Position numbers and translations under genes: made by a program | Shown: piece by piece, positions 12,701 to 53,225 of the stretch | How the letters are laid out: every line of letters starts with the position of its first letter | Numbering within the stretch: the first letter of the stretch is position 1 | The notes under the pieces: generated by a model | Told to the model about the DNA's origin: nothing | The model's database searches: none | Seen by the model: the letters and a program-made list of their open reading frames with translations, nothing else | Source: Sphaerolaimus hirsutus | Taxonomy: Eukaryota > Nematoda > Chromadorea > Monhysterida > Sphaerolaimidae | Direction: 5' to 3' | DNA length: 64,000 bases | NCBI GenBank assembly: GCA_964036195.1 | Contig: OZ038459.1 | Span: 4,275,206 to 4,339,205 of the forward strand

Positions 12701-15700
12701 GAGCATTTGGGGGAAATGGGGGTTGTATACGGAGCCAAGTGGATGGGGGGGGGGAGCACCCTCCTCACATTTAGCCCTGTAAAAGTAGAATGGTGTTATG
12801 GTGCTGGTGCCATGTGTAGGTGCTGCGCCGTGGATGGATTGGCATTGGTGCCAAAATGCGCTTATTTATGAATTTCAGGGGTATCCCACTGGGGCTGGGA
12901 ATGGGGCTAACCCCCCCTCCCAAATCCACCAGCTATCTATCTGTTCTGGATGCCGCTCAGCTATCTGTCTATCCCAGAGGCAAAAGTTTTGGCTACTATC
13001 CCCTAACCCACCCCCCCCCAAATCGTCCAGCTATCTATCTATCTGATCCCCTTTTCACTCAAAATCATTGATTTTCATATCATTTTGTAGTGTTACACCT
13101 TCAAAATCGCAGATTTTGCCTATATGCCTGTTTATATACCATTCTCGAAATAACCCCCCCCCCAGTTGAGTGTACAGAGAATGTACATGGCAAAACTGCG
13201 GTTTGTGATCTGGCAATGCAGAATATATGTTAAAAACAATGACTGTGTTATGTTAGAACAGGGTTTACACAATCTACATACTAAAATGTGTATAGACTCT
13301 TATACATGGTGCTTATTGTTGCATTTTTTAGGTCTGTGTACGTCAGGGGTATTCTAGTTTTTGGCCCTCTGGGGGGTTGGATAGATAGCAAATCGCTCCT
13401 CCGGAGGGATAGATAGCTGAAAATTTTTCTGGGAGGGTTTGGGGGGGGGGGTTTCGCGGGGGTTCAATATATAGGCATAGAAGAGAGAAAAAGGAGAAAA
13501 ATCGCTAAAAGTAGGTGAAAAATGGCTAAAAATGGGTACATTAGGACATATAGTACTAAAAATAGCTCAAAATAGGCAGTTAGATGCACGAACTAGTGAT
13601 TTTGGAGGTGAAAATCTATATATAGGTATGAAAAATAGCGATTTTGAGTGAAAATTGGGGTATAGTTTCACAAAAATCGCTCCAGATAGGTAGATAGCTG
13701 GCCGATTTGGGGGGGGGGGGTTAAGGGGATAGTAGCCTAAAATTTTGCCTCCGGGATAGATAAATAGCTGAGCAGCCTCTGGGATAGATAGATAGCTGGG
13801 CGATTTGGGGGGGTAACCCCCCCCCCCTTTCCTACCCCTGGTGTACGTTACAAACAACAAATTAGTACTGCGAGTTCGAAAAATTTCTGGTGAAATAATA
13901 AGCCCCCCCCTCGAATAACCCCCCTCAAAATTTCAACTATGGAAAAATAAACCCCCTGGGGGTATTTTGAGGAAATATGGTATAGTTATCTCTTATTTTA
14001 ATTGAAAATCGCTCAATAAACTTTACTATGTGTTATATGTTTCTGTGTTCTCCAATAAAAAAACTTTATTTTGAGTTTTTGAGTTTCTGTGTAAAACAAA
14101 TTTAAAATTTAAAATTGTGTGTTTTTGCCATTGTTGAGCATGGTCAAAAACGCGTGTCAAAGTCTCGGCTTACATCAGCTTAACGAGTTCAGCCATCATC
14201 AATCCAACAGCAAAAATGGAATCTACAGGAATTCCTGATCATTACAAGTGTTCAATGGATCAAATCGGTTGAGAAATGAGTGAGATGTGGATCACAAAAA
14301 AAATTGTCGGAGTCATGAAAATCGGCCTCGGTAGCGAGGCTGATCTGCAAAACTCCGACAAACTTGAACTTCACTTACAGGCGTGACTCAAATTTGTCGT
14401 CACAAGGTGTGAACGAGCTATGCTTGTGATGACATTCTATAAGTGACGTCACCTATTTACATGTAAAATGTTTACAAAATTTGCATTTTTGTATATCAAA
14501 ATTTATCGAGGCTGATTTTACATGTGTGACGACCAAATTTATCAAGGCCGATTGGTCGTCACACATGTGAAATTACCAATTTTTATCAAAAAATGTCTGT
14601 GACGACACAAAATTTTTGTCGTCACCAAAAATCCGTGTAAACAGGGCCTTACACTTAATTGGGGGGGGGTATTTCGAGGGGGGCTACTTCAAGAAGGGTA
14701 TTTCGAGGAAATACGGTACCTAATTTTCAGGTCTCCACTTGGAATACGTCCAATTAATTTTGAACGGAAACCCGCTAAGATGCCACTGCGCCAATGAATG
14801 GCTGGCAGATTTTACTCTTCTCAGAAATAGAATGACATTTGTATTTGGAAGTGGCGCGGGAAATGGACTAAAGTTTCAGATCACGCCCAGCGACTATTTC
14901 GCCCTGCCGAGGTTGTTTTCATTTGATGTAGATATTGTAAAAAAATACCACAGTTTTGGTAGCCTTCGTATGATGGACTACTTGAATGTATACCCTTTTC
15001 AATCACCCCAAAAAAATAAAAAAGCGTGAAAAAATCTAAATATTATTTTTTTATTACATTTTATGTTATGTTTAAAAATCTCAGAAAATCTCTCAAAAAC
15101 AATAAAAAATACAGTATATTTGGTCTTATTTTGAAAAACAATTTTGTTTTGGCGCAGTTATTACGAAACACCACAAAAATGGCTGCGCTTTGGCACCTAC
15201 GACGTTTCTGAAATTGCCGATGGAAACAATTTGGTCTCAGTGAATCAGTGCAACAAGACATTGACACAAAGCTGTCCGCATGTTCGGGTAAATTTTTTAT
15301 TTTTATATTTTTATAATAAAAAATTAGATGAAAAACTGAAGCGTTGAAAATTATGAAATTTACCATTTATCAACGCACTAGGCGGACTTTATCCTCTGCA
15401 CTTGCACTAGTGCATTATTAGGTATGTCTAATATAGTGATAGAAAAAGCAAGAGCCAGGACTTTGGCGCCAAGCGCCAAAAGCTCCATGGCGCTTTCCCT
15501 AGCCCCAGCGCCAAGCGCCAATGGCGCCAGAGCAAAATCATGCCAAGCGCCAAAAGCTCCATGGCGCTTTCCCTAGCCCCAGCGCCAAGCGCCAATGGCG
15601 CCAGAGCAAAATCATGCCAAGCGCCAAAAGCTCCATGGCGCTTTCCCTAGCCCCAGCGCCAAGCGCCAATGGCGCCAGAGCAAAATCACGCCAAGCGCCA

Positions 15701-18700
15701 AAAGCTCCATGGCGCTTTCCCTAGCCCCAGCGCCAAGCGCCAATGGCGCCAGAGCAAAATCATGCCAAGCGCCAAAAGCTCCATGGCGCTTTCCCTAGCC
15801 CCAGCGCCAAGCGCCAATGGCGCCAGAGCAAAATCACGCCAAGCGCCAGAAGCGCTATGGCGATTTTTCCTCTGGCGTCATGGCCATGGCGATTTTGCAT
15901 CAATTGTCTAATGTTGGAAGCGTGCCAATAGTAATTAAAGCATGCGACTTTTCTACACATTTTATTAAATCGTTGTTGTGAATACGTTGACGTTAACAGC
16001 AATCAATGTTTCACTTTTTTATGAAAATCGCATATCATTGGCAGGCTTCCAAGCGTGAACCACGCGAGCAAGGTGTTAGTCACTAGAGTATATTAGGTAT
16101 TAATGTGCTTTTGTGAATCAATACTTAACTAGCATTATTATATTTACTACTGTTTTCAGATAACACACAGCCAATGGCGCCAAAATATCATTTATTTTTA
16201 CAGGCACAATTGAATCCTCTCCAAAAAATATTCAAGCTTGGAACGAGTGTGACAGTAACCTGCGAATTAAAAGTGAACCCACCAAAAAATGGGCTGCCTT
16301 ATATAGAGCCGAGGAACCAAATCGATGGTATTATAGATGATGGCGTTAGATACACGCAAGAATTTCTTCAAATATTGCCCAATGAATATAATTCATCAAG
16401 ACAGACCGACCGGAACAATTTCGTTAGTTTAAGCTGAGTTCATAATCAGATAAAAATTGAAACGCAAAATGGAAAAATTGATCTTTCACGCTTTATTATA
16501 ATATATCCTTAAGTTGAATATTTGCTGAAGTGGGACATTTGCGAAAACATGTGTATTATTTAATGGCTTGGAGTTGTGTCTGGGATGACTACCTAGTAAT
16601 TTTTATTGGTGTGTAGTACCAGTCAAGTTAGATAGTGAACACAGGGTCAAAATTTAGTGGAAAATGTGAGGTGTAACACATTTTATTAGTCACGTTTACT
16701 TAAGTGTTTACCGAATGTCGAGAGACAAGCCCGCTAGTATTCATTTCGCTAAGATACTTACCGGAAATTTACACCCGGTAAAAAATATCGGTAAGCTACC
16801 GTTACCACGGTGTATGGTAAACTTTCACACTTTCCCACCTCAATTACCCCCCCACCCTCCAAAAAGCTGCCACCAAACATTGAAATGCGAGGTACCAGAG
16901 TATTAAAAGCGCGGACTAAGAATGACTCTGTTGTTGTAACGGAATCTGAATCGACTTGGCCAGATGCCAAACAACAAAAAAGTTTGATGACACTCACAGT
17001 TGATCCCGTTCAGTCTGAACATATTGGATTGGTTGGATGTCAGGTTATTTTTATTTCTTTTTTCTGAAGGGTCACAACAATTAGCCTGGTTCAGCACCTG
17101 AAGCGGTGCTGAACCCTATATCTCCAGCTGTAGTGGAGAAATTTATTTGAAATTATGAGCATATATACTCGAAATTCCCCTACTACCATACATATTTAGG
17201 CTTCACTGGGGATATTCAATGGGGGTCATATGTGAAGACATTTTGTGAAGCATCTTCACACATTCATTGTGCTATGTAACTGCTCAATTTCAGGACTACC
17301 ACGCATTGTATCCAACTTATGACGTGACGGCATTTGCAGTGGAAGCCCCGCCTATTTTGGTGACTAGGAAGAAAGAAGATACACCAACAAATACAGTGAT
17401 ATCTTTCTTGGCTTTTCTGCACCCCAGAAAGGCACGCGGGTGGTTTTCCCACTTGCAGACAAATTTTACAGATCATTTTAGTTTTGACAATAATGATGTG
17501 GCTATTACTAGCTCACTTGAGGTAGGCTTCTAAATTGTAAAAAAAAACACTTTAAAATCTCCATGCATCAGAAAATTTGGCAGGCATCCAAGAACATTCT
17601 AATCACAATGATGGATACCTATTATTCTGTCAATGTGAGGGTGGCATTGCATTCATTCGTTCTGAACACTGGCACTGGAGATTTTACTCTTGGGATGTGT
17701 AATGCGCTCGGATGTGATCAGGTGCATGTCACAGTGTACAGGCCTTTGGGAAGTGGTATGTGTGCCAACTTGTAAAAAAATCATTGTTTGAGTCATTTTG
17801 AGTGCCACAAAACTCTTTTTATCTATCAACTTATTTTCTATCTATTTATCTATCAAACTATATTTTTTCAGAGGATAAAGGCAATGTTATCACAAATATG
17901 GTTGTGCAGGCCAGAAAAGAAGAAAATTTGGACATGGTGTTTGTAATGGTTTTGGTATCTTCAGTGTCTGTTTTCACTGTGAGTATAATATACAATTGTA
18001 CCATACTGCATGCGGCACAAAACATACAGCTGTTTGACTATAACATCCACTTAATGTAGATTTTGTGCCTTACTTCAATTGTTTGCCTGTGGAAGGTTCA
18101 AAGAAAATGTCACACACGATTGAATAATGGTAGAAATACCAGTCATGGAGTTTCACAACATGAATTGTCAACTTATGCTGATCAGAGGTTTTATTTGTTG
18201 ACAGATTCAGATTCAAACACAACAGCTTACATCGGGCTCAGAAATAGCCTAAAGTACAGATATATTGATCAGAAATCATTGACTTTGGTAACAGAACTTG
18301 GAAGAGGTGCCTTTGGAGAAGTTTACAAAGCCTATTGGAATGTCAGTAATTCATTTTTTCAACTTATTCTGCAAGTGGTCAGTTGTAACTCAAGTCAGTT
18401 GTAAGCCAAGATACAAAGTGTGACACAAAAAGTAGGCACACCGGCAATCAGTTCTGCAGACTGCAATATTTACTTGTCAATTGTCTTAACACATAAGTAT
18501 GCCTATAACCCAGCAATTTTCTTACACTCGTCTGCTTGCTGAATTTGCAATATTTTGGCAGAATATATTAATTTACAACACAATCTCTAAAATTGCTACA
18601 AAAATCTGTCAGGACTCTGGCAATGTAGACAATTCAAATTCTGTGGCAAGCAGCCAGCGAGAAACCACTCGATTAGTAGCTGTGAAATTGTTGCCAATTT

Positions 18701-35647: not shown

Positions 35648-35776
35648 TTTTTCTAAGTATTTTCTGGCGAAATAATAGACCCCCCCCTCGAATAACCCCC
35701 CCCCCTCGAATTATCCCCCCCTAAAATTTTGCTGGCGAAATAATAAACCCCCTGGGGGTATTTCGAGGTAATACGG
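35648..35776. mobile_element. Right half of a CCGTATTACC MITE
   Basis: GGCGAAATAATAGACCCCCC...GGTATTTCGAGGTAATACGG then TA; 9 bp further the gypsy LTR begins. Confidence 0.6.
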
Positions 35777-35785
35777 TATATAAAT

Positions 35786-35939
35786 TGTTGAGATCCGTGA
35801 TGCAAGCTTATCTTGCTTTCCCGTTTATCTGTTTAAATATAATGATATGAGAGTGATTGGACAGCTGACATCACCATAAATTCTTCTTCAACAAATCCTC
35901 TCGAGTCGTATCGTCGACAAGCCGCAAATACGCGCAACA
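35786..35939 (+). repeat. Left LTR of the gypsy-type element
   Basis: Starts TGTTG and ends CAACA. By eye it matches 42776-42929 at every one of 154 positions. Short for a gypsy LTR. It contains TTAAATATAATG as a possible core-promoter-like stretch; no clear AATAAA. Confidence 0.9.
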
Positions 35940-35942
35940 TTT

Positions 35943-35960
35943 TGGTGGACGACCTGACTT
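35943..35960 (+). promoter_or_regulatory. Primer-binding site of the gypsy-type element
   Basis: TGGTGGACGACCTGACTT starts 3 nt after the LTR; the leading TGG fits pairing with the CCA end of a tRNA. I cannot name the tRNA. Its presence here, and not next to the right LTR, fixes the + orientation of the ends. Confidence 0.7.
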
Positions 35961-36482
35961 CTTTTCCCAGGTGCGAGAGGTCCGCAGTTCGGTTCGGTTC
36001 GCTTCGGTTCGGTTCTTTCGGTTGATGTTCAGCAACTTTTTCAACGGTTTTCGGTAGCCGGGGGGGGGGATAGGTTCGGCGGTCCAGCGCCAAAACTCGG
36101 TTTTCGGTTTTCGGTTTCGGTTTCGGTTCGGTCTGCAGTCTCGCTGTGCAGTTTTAGGTCGGGTGCAGTAGTCCCGGCAATCTCAGTTCAGGGTTCGGTT
36201 TTCTGGTGCAGTGCGGTTCGTGCGGTTCCGGTTCGAGTACAGTTTCGGGGTTCGGTTTGAGTGCAGTTCTGGCAGTTTTCGGTTTGGTTCGGGGTTCGGC
36301 TTGAGTGTTCAAGTGCAGTTTTGGGGTTCGGTTTGAGTGCAATTCTGGCACTTTCCAGTGAGTGAGTGCAGTTCTGGCAGTTTTCGGTGTTCTGGCAGTT
36401 TTTGGTTGGCAGTTTTCGGTTTGGTGAGCAGTTTCGGTCCGATTTTCAGTTCCGTTTCCGACGCCAGTTTCAGCGTTGGAAC
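35961..36482 (+). other. Leader of the gypsy-type element, TTCGGTT-rich
   Basis: Untranslated leader dominated by degenerate GGTTCGGTTTTCGG and GTGCAGTTCTGGCAG repeats (about 35990-36440). No coding frame. Confidence 0.55.
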
Positions 36483-37395
36483 ATGTCCAACTCTAGTTCG
36501 AACAGTATGATTTCGGCCCGGCGGCACACAAGGGCACACCCGGTCAATTCCATCTCCGCATATCCGCCACATTCGTCAGCAGAACGCCAGCGCCAGGAAA
36601 CGGCTCTTCGGCGTGCCTGTCGTCCTTCCCACGAGCCAGCTCAGCCCGTCCCGAGTGAATTGTTTTGGCGCCCAGCCAGCGTATTGGCTCAGAGTTCTGC
36701 GAATTCGTCACCACGCGGCGCACCGCGTTACATGGTTTCATCAGATGCGCCACCAGTTGCGCAGCGCACCTTTTCTGTTCCGTTGCCAAATTTTGTTGTT
36801 CCGCCGACGTTCGTGACCCGAGACGGGGTGGTGACAAACCGCGCAACACAGGTCAACGTCTCAACGCCTTCCCCCCGTACTTTTGCAGAGGTAGTTGACT
36901 CTTTCCGACAGACGCATTCTGCTTTTCGCTCTCATTTGTTGGATTTGTGCCAAATGTGCAGTTGCTCGCGCCCCAGCCGCGACAGAGTTTCTTGGTGTCT
37001 TCTTCTGTTTTTCCAGTTGGTCGCGAGTTGACTGAAGTGGCTTTTGTGGATGCGTACTCAAATCGGCATTATGTTATGGAGAATCCGCTTTTGCCATCAG
37101 CAGATGATCGCACTTCTCGCATTCCAATTGACATGTCAGTCCCAGTCGACACATCGGTTCATGTGCAACCTGATCGAACTGATGAAGTCTTGAAATGCCT
37201 GCGTGATTTAAGCGCTCGGATTTCTGCTCTTGAAATGGCCCGAGTGCCTGTTGACGCACCAAAATCTGATGATGCTGCGACGCTGATTGTTGGCGCTCCC
37301 GGGTGGGCCTGAACCACCAACCTTTCGGTTATGCCGAGAAATATTTCACCCTGAAAGCAACTTTTGAGCGGAACAGCGGCGTGGGTCATTTTTTC
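36483..37395 (+). pseudogene. gag N-terminal region of the gypsy-type element, frame-broken
   Basis: ATG at 36483 opens a Ser/Pro-rich frame (MSNSSSNSMISARRH) to about 36930; coding character then continues in another frame to about 37310 (e.g. SVFPVGRELTEVAFVDAYSN) and in the third frame to 37395 (FGYAEKYFTLKATFERNSG). Two single-base frame changes therefore seem to interrupt gag (or are assembly errors near CCCGGG and TTTTC). At 37395 the coding sequence stops at the inversion breakpoint; its continuation is found on the opposite strand 5 kb away. Confidence 0.6.
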
Positions 37396-40300
37396 ACTGT
37401 TTGAGTCGGTTTTGGTACTCGAGTCGGTTTTGGGTAGTCGAGTCGGTTTGGGTAGTTGGGTCGGTTGAGGCAGTTTTGGTAGTTTCCAGACAAATCGCCG
37501 GGCGACGGAAAATGGTTCATGATCCTGATCAACCAAAAGCAGGTGAGAACTTTCGACGGTAACGACTTTGAAAGGGCCGTTGAATTTAGGAGAGTTTTTG
37601 TCGATAGAAAAACGTTTCACCATGACGCTATCCCCCGGCGAAATCGTTACCTCGTGTTTCGAATCGAAATAGCGTTTGTACTGAGAACGCGCTTTATCAC
37701 TTTGAGTTTTCGCTACCATCCGAGCTGATTGTTTATCCATGGAACGCGCGGCTGTGTAAAACAAATTCCAATGCGGCAAGTGCCCAAAAACGATGAAAAA
37801 TGGACAACATCCCGTCATTCGATTCATGGACATATTATGTTGGAGTGTCACAAGAGGCAACAAATCATGCCATGGCTGTCGGGGAAACTCTTTTTTGGCG
37901 AAAACTATCAATTCACGAATGAGTCTGTTAGTGCGTTCTACTAGGCCGTTTGCGGATGGATTGTGCGACAATGTTGGAGAATGCATAACGCCAAAGGTCT
38001 CGCACAACAACTGCATGTCTGAATTCACAAATTCGGTGCCTCTATCAGTCACAACGGCGCGTGGTGCCCCGCAAAACATGAATAAATGTTTGTAAATTGC
38101 TTTCACAACCACTGCAGAGCGGAGGGAAGTCACCAATGCTGTAATCGTGTATCTAGAAAAAGCGTCCACCATCACCAGAACTTTGAAACGAGAAGTGGCG
38201 TCATAATGCAAAATGTCCAAATGAAAAACCTCGAATGGTTGGGAGGGAGTTTCTAAATCTCCTAAAGGGGCTGCGTTCACCCGATGCGACTTAACCTGCA
38301 TGCAGTCTGCACACGCCTGGCAGAATTGTAAAATATCCCGTTGCATTCCGGGCCATGCAAAATACTGACAAAGCAAATGTAAAGTGCGATGACGGCTTCC
38401 GTGACTTGCATAAACTCCCAAATGGGCTTGCAGCAAGCATGCTTGCTGCCATGATTTCGGTGGCCAGATAGCCAAATGATTGCTAGCGGTAGGAGCGCGA
38501 AAATACAACACTCCATCAATCAAATATGCAGACGCAAAAGAATTGGGATCGCTTTCCAACTGTTGGATGACTTCTGATAACTCGCTGTCGCTGCGTTGAA
38601 GTTGAAACCAATCAATTGCGGGTTCTACAGACAAGATAGGTTTAGCTCGGGCTGCCAAAGTCGGTGAGGACGCTGCATGGGCTTGGCCGTTAACTATTTC
38701 GGCTGGTAAATCCAATTCGTTCGGGCCGAACTCTGGCTCACTGATCGGATTACGAGATAAAGCGTCTGCGACTACATTATGAATGCCTGCCCGATGAACA
38801 AATTTGGTCACTTTATCTTGAATGAACATCGCCCACCTCTCCAATTTTGAGCAATGCGGGCTGCGAAGCACCTGTTGTATGCCGGAATTGTCAGTGATAA
38901 CGGTAACTTTTTGCCCCTCGGTATAATCCAAAAAACGTCGAAGCGCCCAACAAATACATAATGCCTCTAAACTAGCTGCAGAATAAGAACTATGAGGATG
39001 TGTCAGCCGTTTTGAAATATATGATATTGGATGTAGCTGACCATCATCACCCATTTGTGACAGCACGGCCCCCAAACCAAGTGCGCTGGCATCAGTTTCC
39101 AAAACAAACCCTTGAGGGTGATCAAACACGGGGTGTGCCAAAACTGGCGTAGTGGAAAGCATGTGTTTCAGGGTGTCCCACGACGTCAACATGTCCTTGG
39201 TCCATTCAAAAGGCGTGTTACCGTGTTTGGGGATTATACCACGCAGAACGGTATACAAGGGTGCAGAAATCCGGCTAAAATTTGGAATGAAATGTGAGTA
39301 GTAAATACATTTGCCCAGGAATCGCCGCAGGTCCTGTTTTGTGTGGACTTTGGGTTGTTCCAAAACAGCTTTGAATCTGGCGGGTGCGGGAAATATCCCG
39401 TCAGCTGAAATCCGGTGCCCTAAATACTTCAACTCCTTGGCAAAAAAGAAGCACTTGGCTGGTTGAATCTTCAGGTTAGCCCAACGCAATCGAGCTAACA
39501 GTCTGCGTATATGACCAAAATGCTCTTTTATCGTAAAACTGCTGCACAAAATGTCATCTATGTACGCTCGCACCCACGGACGGGTCGGATCCTCATTGAG
39601 ACCTGATAAAATTACGGACATCATTCTCTGGAAAGTAGCACCTGCGTTTACTGTTCCAAACGGCATGCGAGTATACCTGTATTGTCCCAAACTGCAAACG
39701 AAAGAAGTACGTTCCTTGGTTTCTTCATCGGCTAAAGGCACGTTATAGTAACCGTGGCGGATATCAAGTGATGTGAACACTTTCCGACCGGAAAACTCGG
39801 ATAACAATTCAGCGATGCGGGGTAACGGGAAAGAGTCGATTTTCGTGACCAGGTTAATCGCCTTGAAATCGACACAAAACCGAAAATCGGAAGTGCCTTT
39901 AGGAGCGATTGTTATAGGAGACGTCCACGCCCCATTGGATGGCTCTATTATACCTTCTTTCAACATTGATTGAACTGTTTTGTGGATGAACATACGTTTA
40001 TCGCGGGCTTCATACCGCGCGGCTTGTTTGATTGGAGGATGTTTCGGGTCTGTGATGATTTTATGCGAAACTAGGTGTGTTTTCCCGACGTCATAGTCGG
40101 AACAGCTAAACACATCATGAAACTCAAGAATGAGGTTGTAAAATGCTTTTTTATCATCATCTGATAATGAAATACAATTTTCTTTTTTCATTTTGTCCCA
40201 AATGTGCTGGGCACGGTCCACTGGAGTGGTTGGCGTGGGCGGGACATCGAACATTATCGAATCAGGAGCCTCTGGTAATTCAACGGAGCCATAGGCACTG

Positions 40301-42399
40301 GTTGTTTCGCTTGTTGCGACACCGAGAGTGGCCAAAGCCTGTGGCCGCGAGAAAACAGCGTGGAAACATTTACCAGGGTCGAAAAGGGCCGTAGCTGGGT
40401 ATAATTCCACCTCAGCAACAACTGTGCAGGGGCTAAGCGATATCGGATAATCATGTTGATTGAACACGTGGAAGAAACAATGTTTGCTACGCGAGACAGG
40501 GACAAGAGTATTATACATTGACAAACCTGTCGAAGGGTGATGTAGATTATGTATGACAAAAGCACCATTGTTCCATGTCGCCTGAGAAATGTTTGGCAAA
40601 CGCGCGGGAGGCTCAAACGGTAACACAGCATGCCCATGCGCAGGGACGAAAACTGACTTATTTGTAGCCACCAATTGAGAAAAAATGTGATTAAAATTAT
40701 CCTCGATCCCCTGTATCTGGTCTTTTGCCTTCGCGTCATCGGGCAGCGGGGCGGACACCTCTTTTTCCATGATGATTGGCAATAGCCAAGACAACTTCAA
40801 GAATGGCATCACGTCTGTACCAATCAAAATCTCACTAAGAGCGTGTGCTGAATTATTCACCAAAAAGTTCACATACACTTTCCGCCGGATACAATCGATT
40901 GGAGAAACATGATCTACAAACAGTTTGATTTGAGATAGATCTCCCGCAACCGTTTGACCATTCACAGTGTCGAGCAAGACTCCCGAGACAGACAATTCTT
41001 CATCGAGGTTGATTTTCGAATCAGCTGCGATCTTTTTGAGTAATGACAAAGGCAAAAGCGACCGGGTACAACCGCTGTCTAACAAGACTCGACAAGGAAC
41101 ACCTTGTATGTTTAAACGGCAATAAACTAAAGGCCCGTTTTGATCGAGAATGCGTACACAAACTCTCTGATTTTCACCAACGATTGCGCGTGCGCAAAAC
41201 CCATCAGAATGTGTAAGAGTGCCATAACTTTCATGTACGGTCTCAGATAACATATCGCCACACACAAATTTCAAGTCATTCATGTCACTTTCACTCAATT
41301 CAGTAGTGTCACTCGTGTCACTTGTCACTTTTGTGTTACTCGTCACCTTCCCCCGCACTGTCGCTGAAAGAGGCGTCAGCGGGGAACATGGCGTCGAAAA
41401 ACTGCTCAACGTTTTCGGTGCATTGTTCTGAAATGTTTGATAAAATTTGGGATAATATTGGTTTTCGCGCCATTCTTGAAATGCACCTGGATTAGCTCCG
41501 TAGAGAAGGGAGATTCGATGATGAAATTCATTTACCAATGGCATGCATGGGTCTTGAGTTGGGTCATCCTGGATGTCATCATGGTTTTGCTCAATTTCTG
41601 ACGATTCGATAGAGTCATTAACAACGACACCAGCCGCTTTGGCCGAAGCTTGGCGTTGCGTTGGAGCATCGTGAGTTTGCTGCGGACCAAAACGTTTTAC
41701 TTGTCCATAACCGTCGGCCTTATCGGACGACACCACTGTTTTATTGGCACCTGGTTGATTCTGCAAAAAACGGGACAAACGACACTGGCTGATTCGATGT
41801 CCGGAATGGCCAGGACGTGGACATACTGGGTCATTCAAAGCGAGTCGCTGCGGGCCCGAATTTTGTAGAAACTGACGAATCCCAGGGCGAGTATTAGTAA
41901 CGCGTGCGGGGCGCTCAAGAGTGACATTTGGTTTGACAAACTCTGAAAAATACTCGTCAACTATCCGGACTGCCTGGGACAAAGGGGTGTGCTCAGCTTG
42001 GAATTTTTTCCTGAAATTGGCCATGACAAATTTGTCATATCGGCTAGCATCATATCGGGCCCATAACTTCACAGAGACCAAACCCTCAATATTCTCTCTA
42101 GAATGACCGACGCTTGCCTTAACTTCAGGAGGTATTTTTGACAACAAGCGTAAGTAGAACGTCGTCATTGTCTCTGAACGCGTCATGGAAGAATTATCCC
42201 ATTCCACAACAGTATATGTCCGAGAACGATCGCGAAAAACGTCTGAAAGTGCGGCCATCACAACTTTTGGGTCGGACAAAGCTTCGGGTTTGAAAAGTGT
42301 GGTGAGAACACGAAACGCCTCACCCAACAGTTTTGTCGCAAAAACGTCACTCCAAAAGTGCGCGCGCATCTCTTCATCAACGATGGAATTCGAAGCCAT
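37159..42399 (-). CDS. gag-pol: Gag-Pol polyprotein of the gypsy-type element (inverted segment)
   Basis: A 1746-codon uninterrupted frame. Residues 1-190: capsid-like gag; 193-206: zinc knuckle with CX2CX4HX4C spacing but Pro at the second Cys; about 430-530: aspartic protease (LLDSGCTRSLLP, D441); about 790-1000: reverse transcriptase (SLDI D879, YIDD 946-949); about 1095-1215: RNase H (D1103, E1145, D1170, D1212); about 1320-1610: integrase with HX3H/CX2C zinc site (1333, 1337, 1363, 1366) and D1395-D1452-E1488 (DX35E), then GPF. All catalytic residues are intact. The genuine frame ends at residue 1668 (37396); the last 78 residues are read-through into antisense gag. The frame is also open 8 codons upstream of the first Met, to 42423. 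On the - strand no LTR promoter or leader of the usual kind precedes it, so expression is doubtful. Confidence 0.93.
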   Translation of the reverse strand: MASNSIVDEEMRAHFWSDVFATKLLGEAFRVLTTLFKPEALSDPKVVMAALSDVFRDRSRTYTVVEWDNSSMTRSETMTTFYLRLLSKIPPEVKASVGHSRENIEGLVSVKLWARYDASRYDKFVMANFRKKFQAEHTPLSQAVRIVDEYFSEFVKPNVTLERPARVTNTRPGIRQFLQNSGPQRLALNDPVCPRPGHSGHRISQCRLSRFLQNQPGANKTVVSSDKADGYGQVKRFGPQQTHDAPTQRQASAKAAGVVVNDSIESSEIEQNHDDIQDDPTQDPCMPLVNEFHHRISLLYGANPGAFQEWRENQYYPKFYQTFQNNAPKTLSSFSTPCSPLTPLSATVRGKVTSNTKVTSDTSDTTELSESDMNDLKFVCGDMLSETVHESYGTLTHSDGFCARAIVGENQRVCVRILDQNGPLVYCRLNIQGVPCRVLLDSGCTRSLLPLSLLKKIAADSKINLDEELSVSGVLLDTVNGQTVAGDLSQIKLFVDHVSPIDCIRRKVYVNFLVNNSAHALSEILIGTDVMPFLKLSWLLPIIMEKEVSAPLPDDAKAKDQIQGIEDNFNHIFSQLVATNKSVFVPAHGHAVLPFEPPARLPNISQATWNNGAFVIHNLHHPSTGLSMYNTLVPVSRSKHCFFHVFNQHDYPISLSPCTVVAEVELYPATALFDPGKCFHAVFSRPQALATLGVATSETTSAYGSVELPEAPDSIMFDVPPTPTTPVDRAQHIWDKMKKENCISLSDDDKKAFYNLILEFHDVFSCSDYDVGKTHLVSHKIITDPKHPPIKQAARYEARDKRMFIHKTVQSMLKEGIIEPSNGAWTSPITIAPKGTSDFRFCVDFKAINLVTKIDSFPLPRIAELLSEFSGRKVFTSLDIRHGYYNVPLADEETKERTSFVCSLGQYRYTRMPFGTVNAGATFQRMMSVILSGLNEDPTRPWVRAYIDDILCSSFTIKEHFGHIRRLLARLRWANLKIQPAKCFFFAKELKYLGHRISADGIFPAPARFKAVLEQPKVHTKQDLRRFLGKCIYYSHFIPNFSRISAPLYTVLRGIIPKHGNTPFEWTKDMLTSWDTLKHMLSTTPVLAHPVFDHPQGFVLETDASALGLGAVLSQMGDDGQLHPISYISKRLTHPHSSYSAASLEALCICWALRRFLDYTEGQKVTVITDNSGIQQVLRSPHCSKLERWAMFIQDKVTKFVHRAGIHNVVADALSRNPISEPEFGPNELDLPAEIVNGQAHAASSPTLAARAKPILSVEPAIDWFQLQRSDSELSEVIQQLESDPNSFASAYLIDGVLYFRAPTASNHLAIWPPKSWQQACLLQAHLGVYASHGSRHRTLHLLCQYFAWPGMQRDILQFCQACADCMQVKSHRVNAAPLGDLETPSQPFEVFHLDILHYDATSRFKVLVMVDAFSRYTITALVTSLRSAVVVKAIYKHLFMFCGAPRAVVTDRGTEFVNSDMQLLCETFGVMHSPTLSHNPSANGLVERTNRLIRELIVFAKKEFPRQPWHDLLPLVTLQHNMSMNRMTGCCPFFIVFGHLPHWNLFYTAARSMDKQSARMVAKTQSDKARSQYKRYFDSKHEVTISPGDSVMVKRFSIDKNSPKFNGPFKVVTVESSHLLLVDQDHEPFSVARRFVWKLPKLPQPTQLPKPTRLPKTDSSTKTDSNSEKMTHAAVPLKSCFQGEIFLGITERLVVQAHPGAPTISVAASSDFGASTGTRAISRAEIRALKSRRHFKTSSVRSGCT

Positions 42400-42423
42400 T
42401 TCTAACTGGCGCTTCCACTCTGA

Positions 42424-42696
42424 GAACGAGATGACGTCACGAAGAACCTACAGGACCAACTGGACCACGCGTTGGCGCAGCTACAAATGGCCAACGACCG
42501 GCTGCAAGAATGCGACTTGCTGCACGGCGGCAACGCGGAACCGGGTCCGGAACCGGAACCGCTACACGACCATGTGCCGCCGCTCGACAATGACGCAGAG
42601 AACCGCCTGCTAGGCGGTCCGGAGCTTGTAGTGGGCCAGGTCAACATGCTCAACGTGAAACTTGATGACCCGGGTGAACCCCCTGCTACCGAGTGA
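42424..42696 (+). CDS. Displaced C-terminal tail of Pol, coiled coil
   Basis: 90 codons and TGA on the + strand, entered from the right-hand breakpoint without a start codon. The first 35 residues have leucine heptads (LQDQLDHALAQLQ), then an acidic Pro-rich end (AEPGPEPEPLHDHVPP). Its frame is the one that the inverted Pol frame would enter at its residue 1668 if the segment were in the other orientation. Not expressed as such here. Confidence 0.65.
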   Translation, partial: ERDDVTKNLQDQLDHALAQLQMANDRLQECDLLHGGNAEPGPEPEPLHDHVPPLDNDAENRLLGGPELVVGQVNMLNVKLDDPGEPPATE

Positions 42697-42763
42697 ATGA
42701 TGTCACATTTGAGAGGGGGGGGTACAAAAAAGACCGGTTTTTACGGTTTCACCCCTCTCATTT

Positions 42764-42775
42764 GTGGGGGGATCT
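42764..42775 (+). promoter_or_regulatory. Polypurine tract of the gypsy-type element
   Basis: GTGGGGGGATCT immediately before the right LTR, where plus-strand DNA synthesis would be primed. A second G-run (GAGAGGGGGGGG) lies at about 42712. Confirms + orientation of the 3' end. Confidence 0.6.
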
Positions 42776-42929
42776 TGTTGAGATCCGTGATGCAAGCTTA
42801 TCTTGCTTTCCCGTTTATCTGTTTAAATATAATGATATGAGAGTGATTGGACAGCTGACATCACCATAAATTCTTCTTCAACAAATCCTCTCGAGTCGTA
42901 TCGTCGACAAGCCGCAAATACGCGCAACA
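42776..42929 (+). repeat. Right LTR of the gypsy-type element
   Basis: Direct repeat of 35786-35939, no difference seen; followed by the AAAT target duplication. Confidence 0.9.
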
Positions 42930-43414
42930 AAATGTAAAAAATTTTTTTACTCAGCACTGAACTGGCTATTTTGGTTAGGTGACATATGATCTTTTATACC
43001 AGTTTTTTGCTATTTTTTTCCCTATTTTTAGAGTTTTTCACCATTTTCACATCTATGCTTTGAAAAACCCAATATAAACGCCTATCTGAAATACTTTTTC
43101 TGTACTCCAATATTTTCAAAAAGTATATGTAAAAGCGAGTACAGGTACTTTTTAGGGGAAACATACACGTATATACTCAGTACTCAAGTAGGTAAATATG
43201 CATAATTTTAGAGTATAAGTAAAAAAAAGTTAACAACTTAGGATACTTCAACGTGCCACATAATTAGTTGGTGAACTCAATTTACGTTACATATACTAGA
43301 TAAATATGTATGTATATAATACTCAAGTACTACGAGTAAATAATCATGTCTAAATTTTCTCTGAAAAATATCTGTACTAGCCTTTACATATTTCTTACAT
43401 ATAAAAAGTTTCTA

Positions 43415-43522
43415 CCGTATTTCGAGGGGGGGGGTGATTGTTTCATAGTGGTCCCGAGAGGATGGGTCAAACGAAGGGGGGGGGGGTATTTCGAGGGGGG
43501 GGGGTATTTCGAGGAAATACGG
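43415..43522. mobile_element. 108-bp minimal CCGTATTTC MITE
   Basis: CCGTATTTCGAGG...GGAAATACGG between TA pairs with only G-rich repeats inside; an internally deleted copy. A left half of another copy follows at 43598-43800. Confidence 0.65.
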
Positions 43523-43823
43523 TACATAAAATTCTTTCTACATTCTTACATATAAAATTTCATACTTCATTCAAATTTCGTAAAATTTTCTTATTTACCG
43601 TATTTCCTCGGAATACCCCCAGCCCGGGGGGGGGGGTATTTTTCAAGAGTGGAAATTTTGAGGGGGGTATTTCGAGGGGGGCTTATTCGAGGGTGGGTTA
43701 TTTTTTCGTCAGAAATTTTCATGAATATCATAGTAAAGAGTACGCGTTTTCATACCCAAAACCGGTAATAAACGCGAGAATATAGGGTATATTCGGACAT
43801 ATCGGGTATATAGACGTACATCT

Positions 43824-44485: not shown

Positions 44486-44540
44486 TGTATACATATTAGC
44501 GTGCATGTGCATCTGCGATGAAAATTGGCGTCAATAAATA

Positions 44541-44965
44541 CCGTATTTCCTCGAAATACCCCCCCCCCCCCCCTCGAAATACCCCGCCCACCCCCTCGTT
44601 TGACCCCCCCCCCCTCTCGGCACCACTATGAAACAATCACCCCCCCTCGACATACCCCCCCCCAAATTGAGTGTAAAGGGAACGTACATGACAATAACTG
44701 TAGTTTGTGTTCTGTGTACTGCAGAACACACGTTAAAACAATGTCGGTGTCACGTTAGAACAGTGTACATACCATCTACATACTAATATTAGTCTACAGA
44801 ACCTTATAAATGGCGGTTTTTGTTGTATTTTTCGACGTCTGCGTACGTTTCAGACGACAATTTCGTACTTGGTTTTCAAAAATTTTCTTGCGAAATAACA
44901 ACCCCCCCCCTCGAAATACCCCCCCCCCTCGTTTAACCCCCCCCCCCTCGAAATACCCCCCTCGT
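44541..44965. mobile_element. CCGTATTTCC MITE, right end missing
   Basis: TA, CCGTATTTCCTCGAAATACC, C-rich repeats with very long C-runs, the family core, and a second set of C-rich repeats; stops without the terminal GGAAATACGG. Confidence 0.65.
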
Positions 44966-45497
44966 TATACGAATGAAATTACATGGGAACATCGCTATTG
45001 AACAGGAGTGACTTTTTGTCAATTTACTTGGCTGACCGCAAAGTAAGCGCCTGTATTAATCGATTATGCGCGAGCCGGATACTCATGTAAAAATACGCGC
45101 ATTCACACAAAAAAATTTAAAAAGGCGGAGTCAAGTTAGACCAAAATATGTTTCATTCTTGAAATTTTTTTTCTTTTTTGAACAATTGTTTTTCAATTGT
45201 ACAAAATTGTTTTGAACAATTGAACGATGACATCATGATGAAGGTTTTCATTCAGAAAAACGGGTAGCGTACGGTCCATATATGAGAACAGCAAGTAGTT
45301 AGCTTATATCACCTGCATTAAAAATGACATTTGCACAGCAATAAATCATCAATTTTTACAAAGGAAAATGAAAAATCGGCAGAAGCCGTAGTTACAGTAT
45401 ATTGCCTAATAAATAGACACTTTATACATTTTTTATTTGATAATCGAATTTTTAAATTTAGCTTTCAAATGTTTTTGCCCTTCTATGATATGAAACA

Positions 45498-48504: not shown

Positions 48505-49420
48505 ATGTAGAAGAAATTCCTACACACCTCACAAGTTTCATGGTGACATGACTTCCACATTGTCAATGGGATTTCAGGTGAAGTGCCTTCCACATGCTTC
48601 ATAAGAGTTTAGGTGAAGAGCCTCCACATTCTTCAGAAGATTTCAGGTGAAGAGCCTCCACATGCTTCACAAGATTTCATGTGAAAAGCCTCCACATGCT
48701 TCACAAGATTTCAGGTGAAGTGCCTCCACTTTCTTCACAAGATTTCAGGTGAAGAGCCTCCACATTCTTCAGAAGATTTCAGGTGAAGAGCCTCCACATG
48801 CTTCACAAGATTTCATGTGAAAAGCCTCCACATGCTTCACAAGATTTCAGGTGAAGTGCCTCCACTTTCTTCACAAGATTTCAGGTGAAGAGCCTCCACA
48901 TTCTTCACAAGATTTTAGGTGAAGAGCCTCCACATGCTTCACAAGATTTCAAGTGAAAAGCCTCCACATGCTTCACAAGATTTCAGGTGAAGAGCCTCCA
49001 CTTTCTTCACAAGATTTCAGGTGAAGAACCTTCAACACATCTTCACAAGATTTCAGGTGAAGTGGCTCCACATTCTTCACAAGATTTCAGGTGAAGAGCC
49101 TCCACATTCTTCACAAGATTTCAGGTGAAGAGCCTCCACATTCTTCACAAGATTTCAGGTGAAGTGGCTCCACATTCTTCGCAAGATTTCAGGTGAAGAG
49201 CCTCCACATACTTCTCAAGATTTCAGGTGAAGAGCCTCCACATTCTTCACAAGATTTCAGGTGAAGTGGCTCCACATTCTTCACAAGATTTCAGGTGAAG
49301 AGCCTCCACATTCTTCACAAGATTTCAGGTGAAGTGCCTCCACATGCTTCACGAGATTTTACGTGAAGTGCCTCCATATCCTTCACAACATTTTAGGTGA
49401 AGTGCCTTCATGTTCACTTT
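48505..49420. repeat. 34-bp tandem array with higher-order structure
   Basis: About 25 copies of a 34-bp unit containing CTTCAC-AAGATTTCAG-GTGAAG, i.e. a 6-bp inverted repeat around a 10-bp loop, then AGCCTCCACAT. Variant units (GAAAAG, GAAGTG, GAAGAG) recur in the same order 136 bp apart (48632 and 48768), a four-unit higher-order repeat on the left half. Every unit carries a splice-acceptor-like TTTCAG/GTGAAG. Confidence 0.85.
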
Positions 49421-52989: not shown

Positions 52990-53225
52990 AATTATCACTC
53001 TCTGGCGCTTTTTTGGCGCTTTAAAAAATGGGAGCGCCAAGCGCCAATGGCGCCACTGGAAAGTAGCGCCAAGCGCCAAAAGCGCCATGGCGCTTTTCGG
53101 AAACACGGCGCCAAGCGCCAATGGCGCCACAGCATTTTAGCGCCAAGCGCCAAAAGCGCCATGGCGCTTTTTGCTTTGGCGCTAGCGCCAGGCGCCAGCG
53201 CCATGGCGCTTTCACATCACTAAAC
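52990..53225. repeat. GGCGCC-palindrome MITE (GTGATG family)
   Basis: Dense GCGCCAAGCGCCAATGGCG motifs; the right edge GCGCTTTCACATCAC matches the GTGATG terminus. Long frames across it follow from the motif and are not genes. Confidence 0.55.

What the first reader, a model, noticed from the sequence alone, without database searches (positions are those of the whole stretch)
37396..42423. The 5.03-kb core of a gypsy-type retrotransposon is inverted between its own LTRs
Seen: PBS, gag start, pol tail and polypurine tract are + strand; capsid to integrase is - strand. At 37395/37396 a + strand gag frame meets the antisense end of pol; at 42423/42424 the - strand capsid frame (open to SEWKRQLE) meets the + strand coiled-coil tail. 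Both junctions are codon boundaries, and reversing the segment would make the frames continuous on both sides, which is very unlikely by chance. A 3-bp inverted match (TTC at 37393-37395, GAA at 42424-42426) sits at the breakpoints. LTRs are identical, so the rearrangement is recent, happened during reverse transcription, or the inverted form itself is mobile. I know of no described family with this layout.
Basis: partly seen in the sequence, partly recalled or inferred. Interest (0 to 1): 0.9.

Follow-up and report, generated by a model that had tools for sequence, protein, structure and literature searches.

The report
Scrambled retrotransposon with a tRNA scar
A recently inserted jumping gene was scrambled, its main coding block turned backwards and a copied piece of a transfer RNA left near one join, which suggests that the copying enzyme changed templates while making the DNA.

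Summary
The core of this Ty3/gypsy element (35786-42929; identical 154-bp LTRs, target duplication AAAT) does lie backwards between its LTRs. It is not a clean inversion, and the frame continuity is coincidence. The closest copy found (C9, all genes on one strand, blocks 74-91% identical) shows five joined segments: LTR-gag (+) to 37285; a 41-nt antisense tRNA-Asn 3' half (37291-37331); about 65 bp of a third ORF that lies after pol in C9 (+); the core, 37478-42440 (-); the end of ORF3, PPT and LTR (+). Relative to C9, 244 bp of gag and about 1.4 kb around the pol end and ORF3 are missing. The tRNA piece begins with TGG, complement of CCA, encoded by 0 of 7 tRNA-Asn genes seen; its only mismatch is at tRNA position 58, often m1A and error-prone for reverse transcriptases. 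I infer repeated template switching during reverse transcription, before integration. No second such copy was found: of 44 related places examined (of 85 listed), 35 are collinear as far as checked, 0 inverted, 9 undetermined. A defective copy, but a readable fossil of aberrant reverse transcription.

The parts
35782..35785 (.). target-site duplication, left (AAAT)
35786..35939 (+). 5' LTR, 154 bp, TG...CA, identical to the 3' LTR
35943..35958 (+). primer binding site (TGGTGGACGACC...), conserved in related elements; not complementary to tRNA-Asn
36483..37285 (+). 5' part of gag, collinear with C9 gag up to 37285; broken by a small frameshift within this stretch
37286..37290 (+). 5 nt of unassigned origin between gag and the tRNA copy
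37291..37331 (-). copy of the 3' half of tRNA-Asn(GTT): antisense on +, begins with TGG (complement of CCA), ends in the anticodon loop; mismatch at 37309 = tRNA position 58
37330..37395 (+). fragment of ORF3, which lies 3' of pol in C9 (L009 1762-1698); shares TA with the tRNA copy
37396..37477 (.). unmatched G/T-rich stretch, about 18-19 bp x 3.5 repeats; origin not settled (possibly ORF3 intron or pol end)
37478..42440 (-). inverted core: part of capsid (by position), protease, RT, RNase H and integrase; 88.6% identical to C9; open frame
42439..42696 (+). C-terminal end of ORF3 (coiled-coil protein in C9); shares AC with the core end
42764..42772 (+). polypurine tract
   Evidence: by eye
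42776..42929 (+). 3' LTR
42930..42933 (.). target-site duplication, right (AAAT)

Best explanation
This is a defective copy of a low-copy Ty3/gypsy lineage whose cDNA was scrambled before integration by repeated template switching of reverse transcriptase. Shown: the segments, their order and strand relative to a collinear copy, the tRNA-Asn half with its CCA complement, the position-58 mismatch, 2-nt overlaps at two joins, identical LTRs and a target duplication. Inferred: the 5'-to-3' path of the + strand. It ran along minus-strand DNA through gag. It then copied a mature tRNA-Asn 3' half from CCA to the anticodon loop, either by jumping onto it or because that half had primed minus-strand DNA inside gag. 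It jumped to minus-strand DNA in ORF3, then to a plus-sense template (for example the second packaged RNA), copying pol back to capsid, which gives the inverted core. Finally it returned to minus-strand DNA in the ORF3 tail and ran to the LTR. The product kept both LTR ends and was integrated normally, presumably with proteins from other copies.
For: The collinear C9 copy and three more distant collinear elements give the usual order. Between the gag N-terminal match and the capsid match the four have 261, 330, 414 and 498 nt (about 240-450 nt after allowing for the unaligned end of the gag query), while the window has none of this sequence. tRNA-Asn match E 3.1e-9 or better genome-wide; TGG in the window but in 0 of 7 tRNA-Asn genes seen; position-58 substitution in the window but in 0 of 7. 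m1A58 gives a high RT error rate and is seen in nearly all zebrafish tRNA clusters (PMC11417395, passages seen). RT template switching yields deletions and insertions, and plus-strand DNA normally copies part of the tRNA primer (PMC3187697, passages seen). Polarity fits: antisense tRNA on the + strand, CCA end first, is what a growing + strand would copy. LTRs identical, duplication present.
Against: The nearest reference is only 74-91% identical by block, not the parent, and itself carries a nested insertion in gag, so some losses could predate the event. TGG could be native gag sequence (about 1/64 by chance), and a single mismatch falls on position 58 by chance about 1 in 38; methylation in this organism was not tested. 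37286-37290 and 37396-37477 are unassigned. Nonhomologous switching was measured as at least 1000-fold rarer than homologous (PMC3187697 passage), and four or more are needed here. The tRNA capture and the inversion could be separate events. No reads were available.
Confidence: 0.6

Rival explanations
1. Rearrangement after integration: several double-strand breaks in a formerly collinear genomic copy, rejoined with the core turned over, with a tRNA cDNA patched in as filler.
For: 2-nt overlaps fit end joining as well as template switching; sequence is missing at both ends of the core; LTR identity does not exclude a recent later event.
Against: Needs at least three breaks in 7 kb plus a filler that looks copied from a CCA-bearing tRNA, so reverse transcription would still be involved.
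Confidence: 0.18
2. One reading: one clean inversion between 37396 and 42423 at a 3-bp inverted match.
For: The core is on the opposite strand; TTC and GAA are present as stated.
Against: Homology boundaries lie elsewhere on both sides, a tRNA piece and an ORF3 fragment lie at the left join, and gag and ORF3 sequence is missing. The '+ gag frame' is 41 codons of other origin.
Confidence: 0.04
3. Assembly artefact.
For: Read data unknown; no reads to check.
Against: The nearest other copy found is 74-91% identical by block, so no near-identical repeat was found that could be misjoined; a tRNA half with a CCA complement is not an assembler product.
Confidence: 0.05
4. An established family that normally carries an inverted core and moves as such.
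For: LTRs, PBS and PPT look intact, so mobilisation in trans is conceivable.
Against: No second copy across the left junction, no other LTR above 86%; 35 of 44 relatives examined collinear as far as checked, 0 inverted, 9 undetermined. 41 of the 85 other listed places were not examined.
Confidence: 0.03
5. Two-step history: tRNA capture or deletion in an earlier round, inversion in a later round of reverse transcription.
For: Nothing orders the events within the element.
Against: All joins but one lie within about 200 bp at the left end of the core; no relative with only one of the changes was found, but only one close relative is known.
Confidence: 0.1

Closest known systems
Ty3/gypsy (Metaviridae-type) LTR retrotransposons with a gag-pol frame and a third ORF
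   Same: LTR-PBS-gag-PR-RT-RH-IN-ORF3-PPT-LTR order in the collinear C9 copy; Pfam RVT_1, RT_RNaseH, rve, H2C2 in the window
   Different: In the window copy the core lies on the other strand, gag is cut and ORF3 is reduced to two fragments
Aberrant retroviral or retrotransposon cDNAs made by template switching (deletions, insertions, nonhomologous recombinants; PMC3187697, passages seen)
   Same: Short overlaps at joins, missing segments, foreign RNA sequence captured
   Different: Described switches usually keep strand polarity (recalled); here one segment reverses it, and the captured RNA is a tRNA half with a CCA complement. No precedent showed in the listings (open PMC papers; titles and abstract starts only; one search showed 12 of 63)
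Priming by tRNA fragments in retrotransposons (copia and a tRNA half; recalled, no call)
   Same: A tRNA fragment enters the reverse-transcription reaction
   Different: Here it is the 3' half of tRNA-Asn, not matching the element's PBS, found inside the element

Membership tests
Ty3/gypsy LTR retrotransposon | RT, RNase H, then integrase (order PR-RT-RH-IN) | tested here: met
   order along the - strand ORF; the protease match is below its Pfam cutoff
Ty3/gypsy LTR retrotransposon | similar LTRs, TG...CA, short target duplication, PBS, PPT | tested here: met
Ty3/gypsy LTR retrotransposon | gag and pol on the same strand as PBS and PPT | tested here: not met
   Gag on the RT strand in 35 of 44 relatives examined, 9 undetermined. 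The window is a rearranged copy, not a separate family
Reverse-transcription template-switch product | captured sequence bears marks of an RNA template | tested here: met
   TGG opposite CCA, in 0 of 7 genes; mismatch at position 58
Reverse-transcription template-switch product | microhomology at joins | tested here: inconclusive
   TA and AC at two joins; gag-to-tRNA and ORF3-to-core joins not resolved
Simple DNA inversion | all sequence kept, two breakpoints | tested here: not met
   gag and ORF3 segments missing relative to C9, extra tRNA piece
Mobile inverted-core family | several copies with the same joins | tested here: not met
   none found for the left junction and LTR (lists are lower bounds); right junction not searched

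The most novel reading that the evidence does not exclude
The element records one aberrant reverse-transcription reaction in which the 3' half of a mature, methylated tRNA-Asn primed or was copied inside gag, and the growing + strand then switched to a packaged plus-sense template. This inverted 5 kb of the genome within the particle while both LTR ends stayed usable for integration: a route by which LTR elements can invert internal DNA before integration.
Probability: 0.5. Interest if true: 0.6.

Novelty: new variant of a known kind. Interest (0 to 1): 0.45.

Why it matters
It separates a striking but wrong claim (a clean, frame-preserving inversion) from what the sequence supports. It also offers a recent molecular fossil of template switching with a tRNA fragment, including the CCA end and a possible methylation footprint. 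If such scars recur, genome scans for 'TGG + tRNA 3' half' inside LTR elements would show how often tRNA halves enter retrotransposon reverse transcription and how often cDNA strands reverse polarity.

Tried and rejected
Frame continuity: rejected after comparison with C9. Distant homologues by protein search: 151 proteins at E <= 0.001, 120 listed, 24-39% identical over 17-60% of the query; no close relative, so they could not settle the breakpoints. Viral-contig scans for the RT and the LTR start found nothing. ARAGORN and Rfam (gathering threshold) on the window found nothing. The origin of 37396-37477 was not found in the window or the loci then held. Whole-genome searches with the right junction, gag and ORF3 did not complete. 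Eight paper searches: for inverted cores, template switching or tRNA capture (listings only), for m1A58. Two papers were seen in passages.

Full report
The window lies at G000:C15:4275206-4339205 of a 348-Mb genome in 762 contigs. The element runs from 35786 to 42929: two identical 154-bp LTRs (TGTTGAGATC...GCGCAACA), AAAT on both sides, a PBS at 35943 and a polypurine tract just before 42776. On the - strand a 1746-aa open frame (37159-42399) carries protease (below the Pfam cutoff), RT, RNase H, H2C2 and integrase; capsid is assigned by position and similarity to relatives. The observation that the core lies backwards between its own LTRs is therefore real.

What the core is inverted from was settled with a second copy in the same genome. 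A search with window 37200-37600 returned a copy on C9, fetched in pieces (L009, L017, L018). It has two LTRs that are 154/154 identical to each other and 83% identical to the window's. Its gag, pol and ORF3 lie on the strand of its LTRs and PBS; gag is interrupted by a 12.6-kb nested insertion, and the frame that starts on the pol side of the insertion is open for 1925 aa through the rest of gag and pol. The alignment places window 36873-37285 in gag (+), 37330-37395 in ORF3 downstream of pol (+), 37478-42440 in capsid-to-pol (inverted), and 42439-42930 in ORF3 tail to LTR (+). The leader and start of gag, window 35682-36874, match the far side of the insertion at 74%; the other blocks are 81-91% identical. 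C9 has 244 bp between the gag match and the core match, and about 765 and 620 bp on either side of the short ORF3 match, that the window lacks.

The + frame that ends at 37395 has 41 open codons and runs through the tRNA piece and the ORF3 fragment, so its fit to the capsid frame is chance. The gag frame meets a stop at 37310-37312 inside the tRNA piece, after a small frameshift further upstream.

The tRNA piece. Window 37293/37294-37331 matches seven other places in the genome at 97% (E 3.1e-9 or better). Five are tRNA-Asn(GTT) genes by ARAGORN and the other two, not run through ARAGORN, have the same sequence. The window carries TGG directly before the complement of the discriminator base, and 0 of 7 genes does. 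That is the complement of the CCA added to mature tRNA (CCA addition is established knowledge). Within the 38 positions there is one mismatch, at 37309, the 16th from the discriminator, which is tRNA position 58 by standard numbering (loop seen). Position 58 is 1-methyladenosine in nearly all zebrafish tRNA clusters and is read with a high RT error rate (PMC11417395, passages seen); that it is methylated here is an inference. The copy ends in the anticodon loop (A38 to U36, ambiguous because of the overlap), where tRNA halves are usually cut (recalled). It is followed by ORF3 sequence with two shared bases.

Mechanism. On the + strand the piece reads TGG first, which is the order in which a growing + strand would copy a tRNA. 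The + strand also reads through the inverted core in the order pol end to capsid, as a DNA strand copying plus-sense RNA would. All segments can be written as one 5'-to-3' synthesis path with switches among minus-strand DNA, tRNA, minus-strand DNA, plus-sense template and minus-strand DNA. This is inference; what is shown is the segment order, the CCA mark, the position-58 mark, two 2-nt overlaps, and LTR and target-duplication integrity. A variant in which the tRNA half primed minus-strand DNA inside gag fits equally. Against it, nonhomologous switching is rare (at least 1000-fold below homologous; PMC3187697 passage). Post-integration repair with a tRNA cDNA filler is the main rival.

How unusual. 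An RT-protein search listed 86 places in the genome, scored out of 2070 candidates. By my count 32 of the 86 listed open frames are at least 1900 aa, more than the window's core alone (a few are listed with internal stops). I looked at 44 of the 85 other places: C9; three whole elements L051-L053 (LTRs 99.3-100% identical; gag, capsid and RT on one strand in frames of 1966-2043 aa); and 1.1-kb stretches (one of 652 bp) at the expected 5' end of 40 more. In these 40, gag was in RT orientation in 30 and the PBS motif (up to 2 mismatches) in 26, with 0 antisense of either, and nothing in 10. One of the 10 was then shown collinear from its RT locus (L032). In total 35 have gag on the RT strand, 0 inverted, 9 undetermined; for the 40 only the 5' side was looked at. 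The window itself scores inverted by the same motifs. The nine could hide an inverted copy, because an inverted core would put gag on the other side. The LTR search found only the window's pair, the C9 pair and one LTR on C1 with no internal matches in the 10 kb on either side, flanked by GTAA on both sides (by eye).

Verdict: a real, recent, defective, mosaic Ty3/gypsy copy with an inverted core; not a clean inversion, and no sign of a new family. The value lies in the tRNA scar and what it says about template switching.

Noticed in passing
L017 846-9581 (G000:C9:10711145-10719880): The nested insertion in the C9 gypsy copy contains two adjacent long frames of a BEL/Pao element (DUF1759, Peptidase_A17, integrase H2C2 domains); the second frame also matches a Monjiviricetes-type viral fusion glycoprotein.
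   Followed up: partly
L009 817-2066 (-) and window 42439-42696: The C9 relative has a third ORF after pol, by eye in two exons, with a coiled-coil C-terminal part and no Pfam family above its cutoff; L051-L053 have other open frames of 132-188 aa there.
   Followed up: partly
G000:C1:12321744-12321897: Solo LTR of the same family (86% identical) flanked by GTAA on both sides.
   Followed up: yes
G000, 86 places listed: A large RT family with near-identical LTRs in the three whole elements examined (99.3-100%) and many open frames near 2000 aa, so probably recently active.
   Followed up: partly
window 35679-35784, 43412-43696, 44536-44968: Many short C/G-run motifs of the type CCCCCTCGAAATACCCCCC around the element, in both orientations; related copies also lie near the C1 and C9 insertions.
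   Followed up: no
window 15468-15866, 48570-49407, 53034-53171: Tandem arrays: 74-bp GCGCCAAGCGCC-rich units and a 34-bp unit repeated about 25 times.
   Followed up: no
L023 and L024 (C1:17424947 and C1:17597400): Two relatives about 170 kb apart on C1 with the same RT score and opposite orientation, suggesting a local duplication.
   Followed up: no
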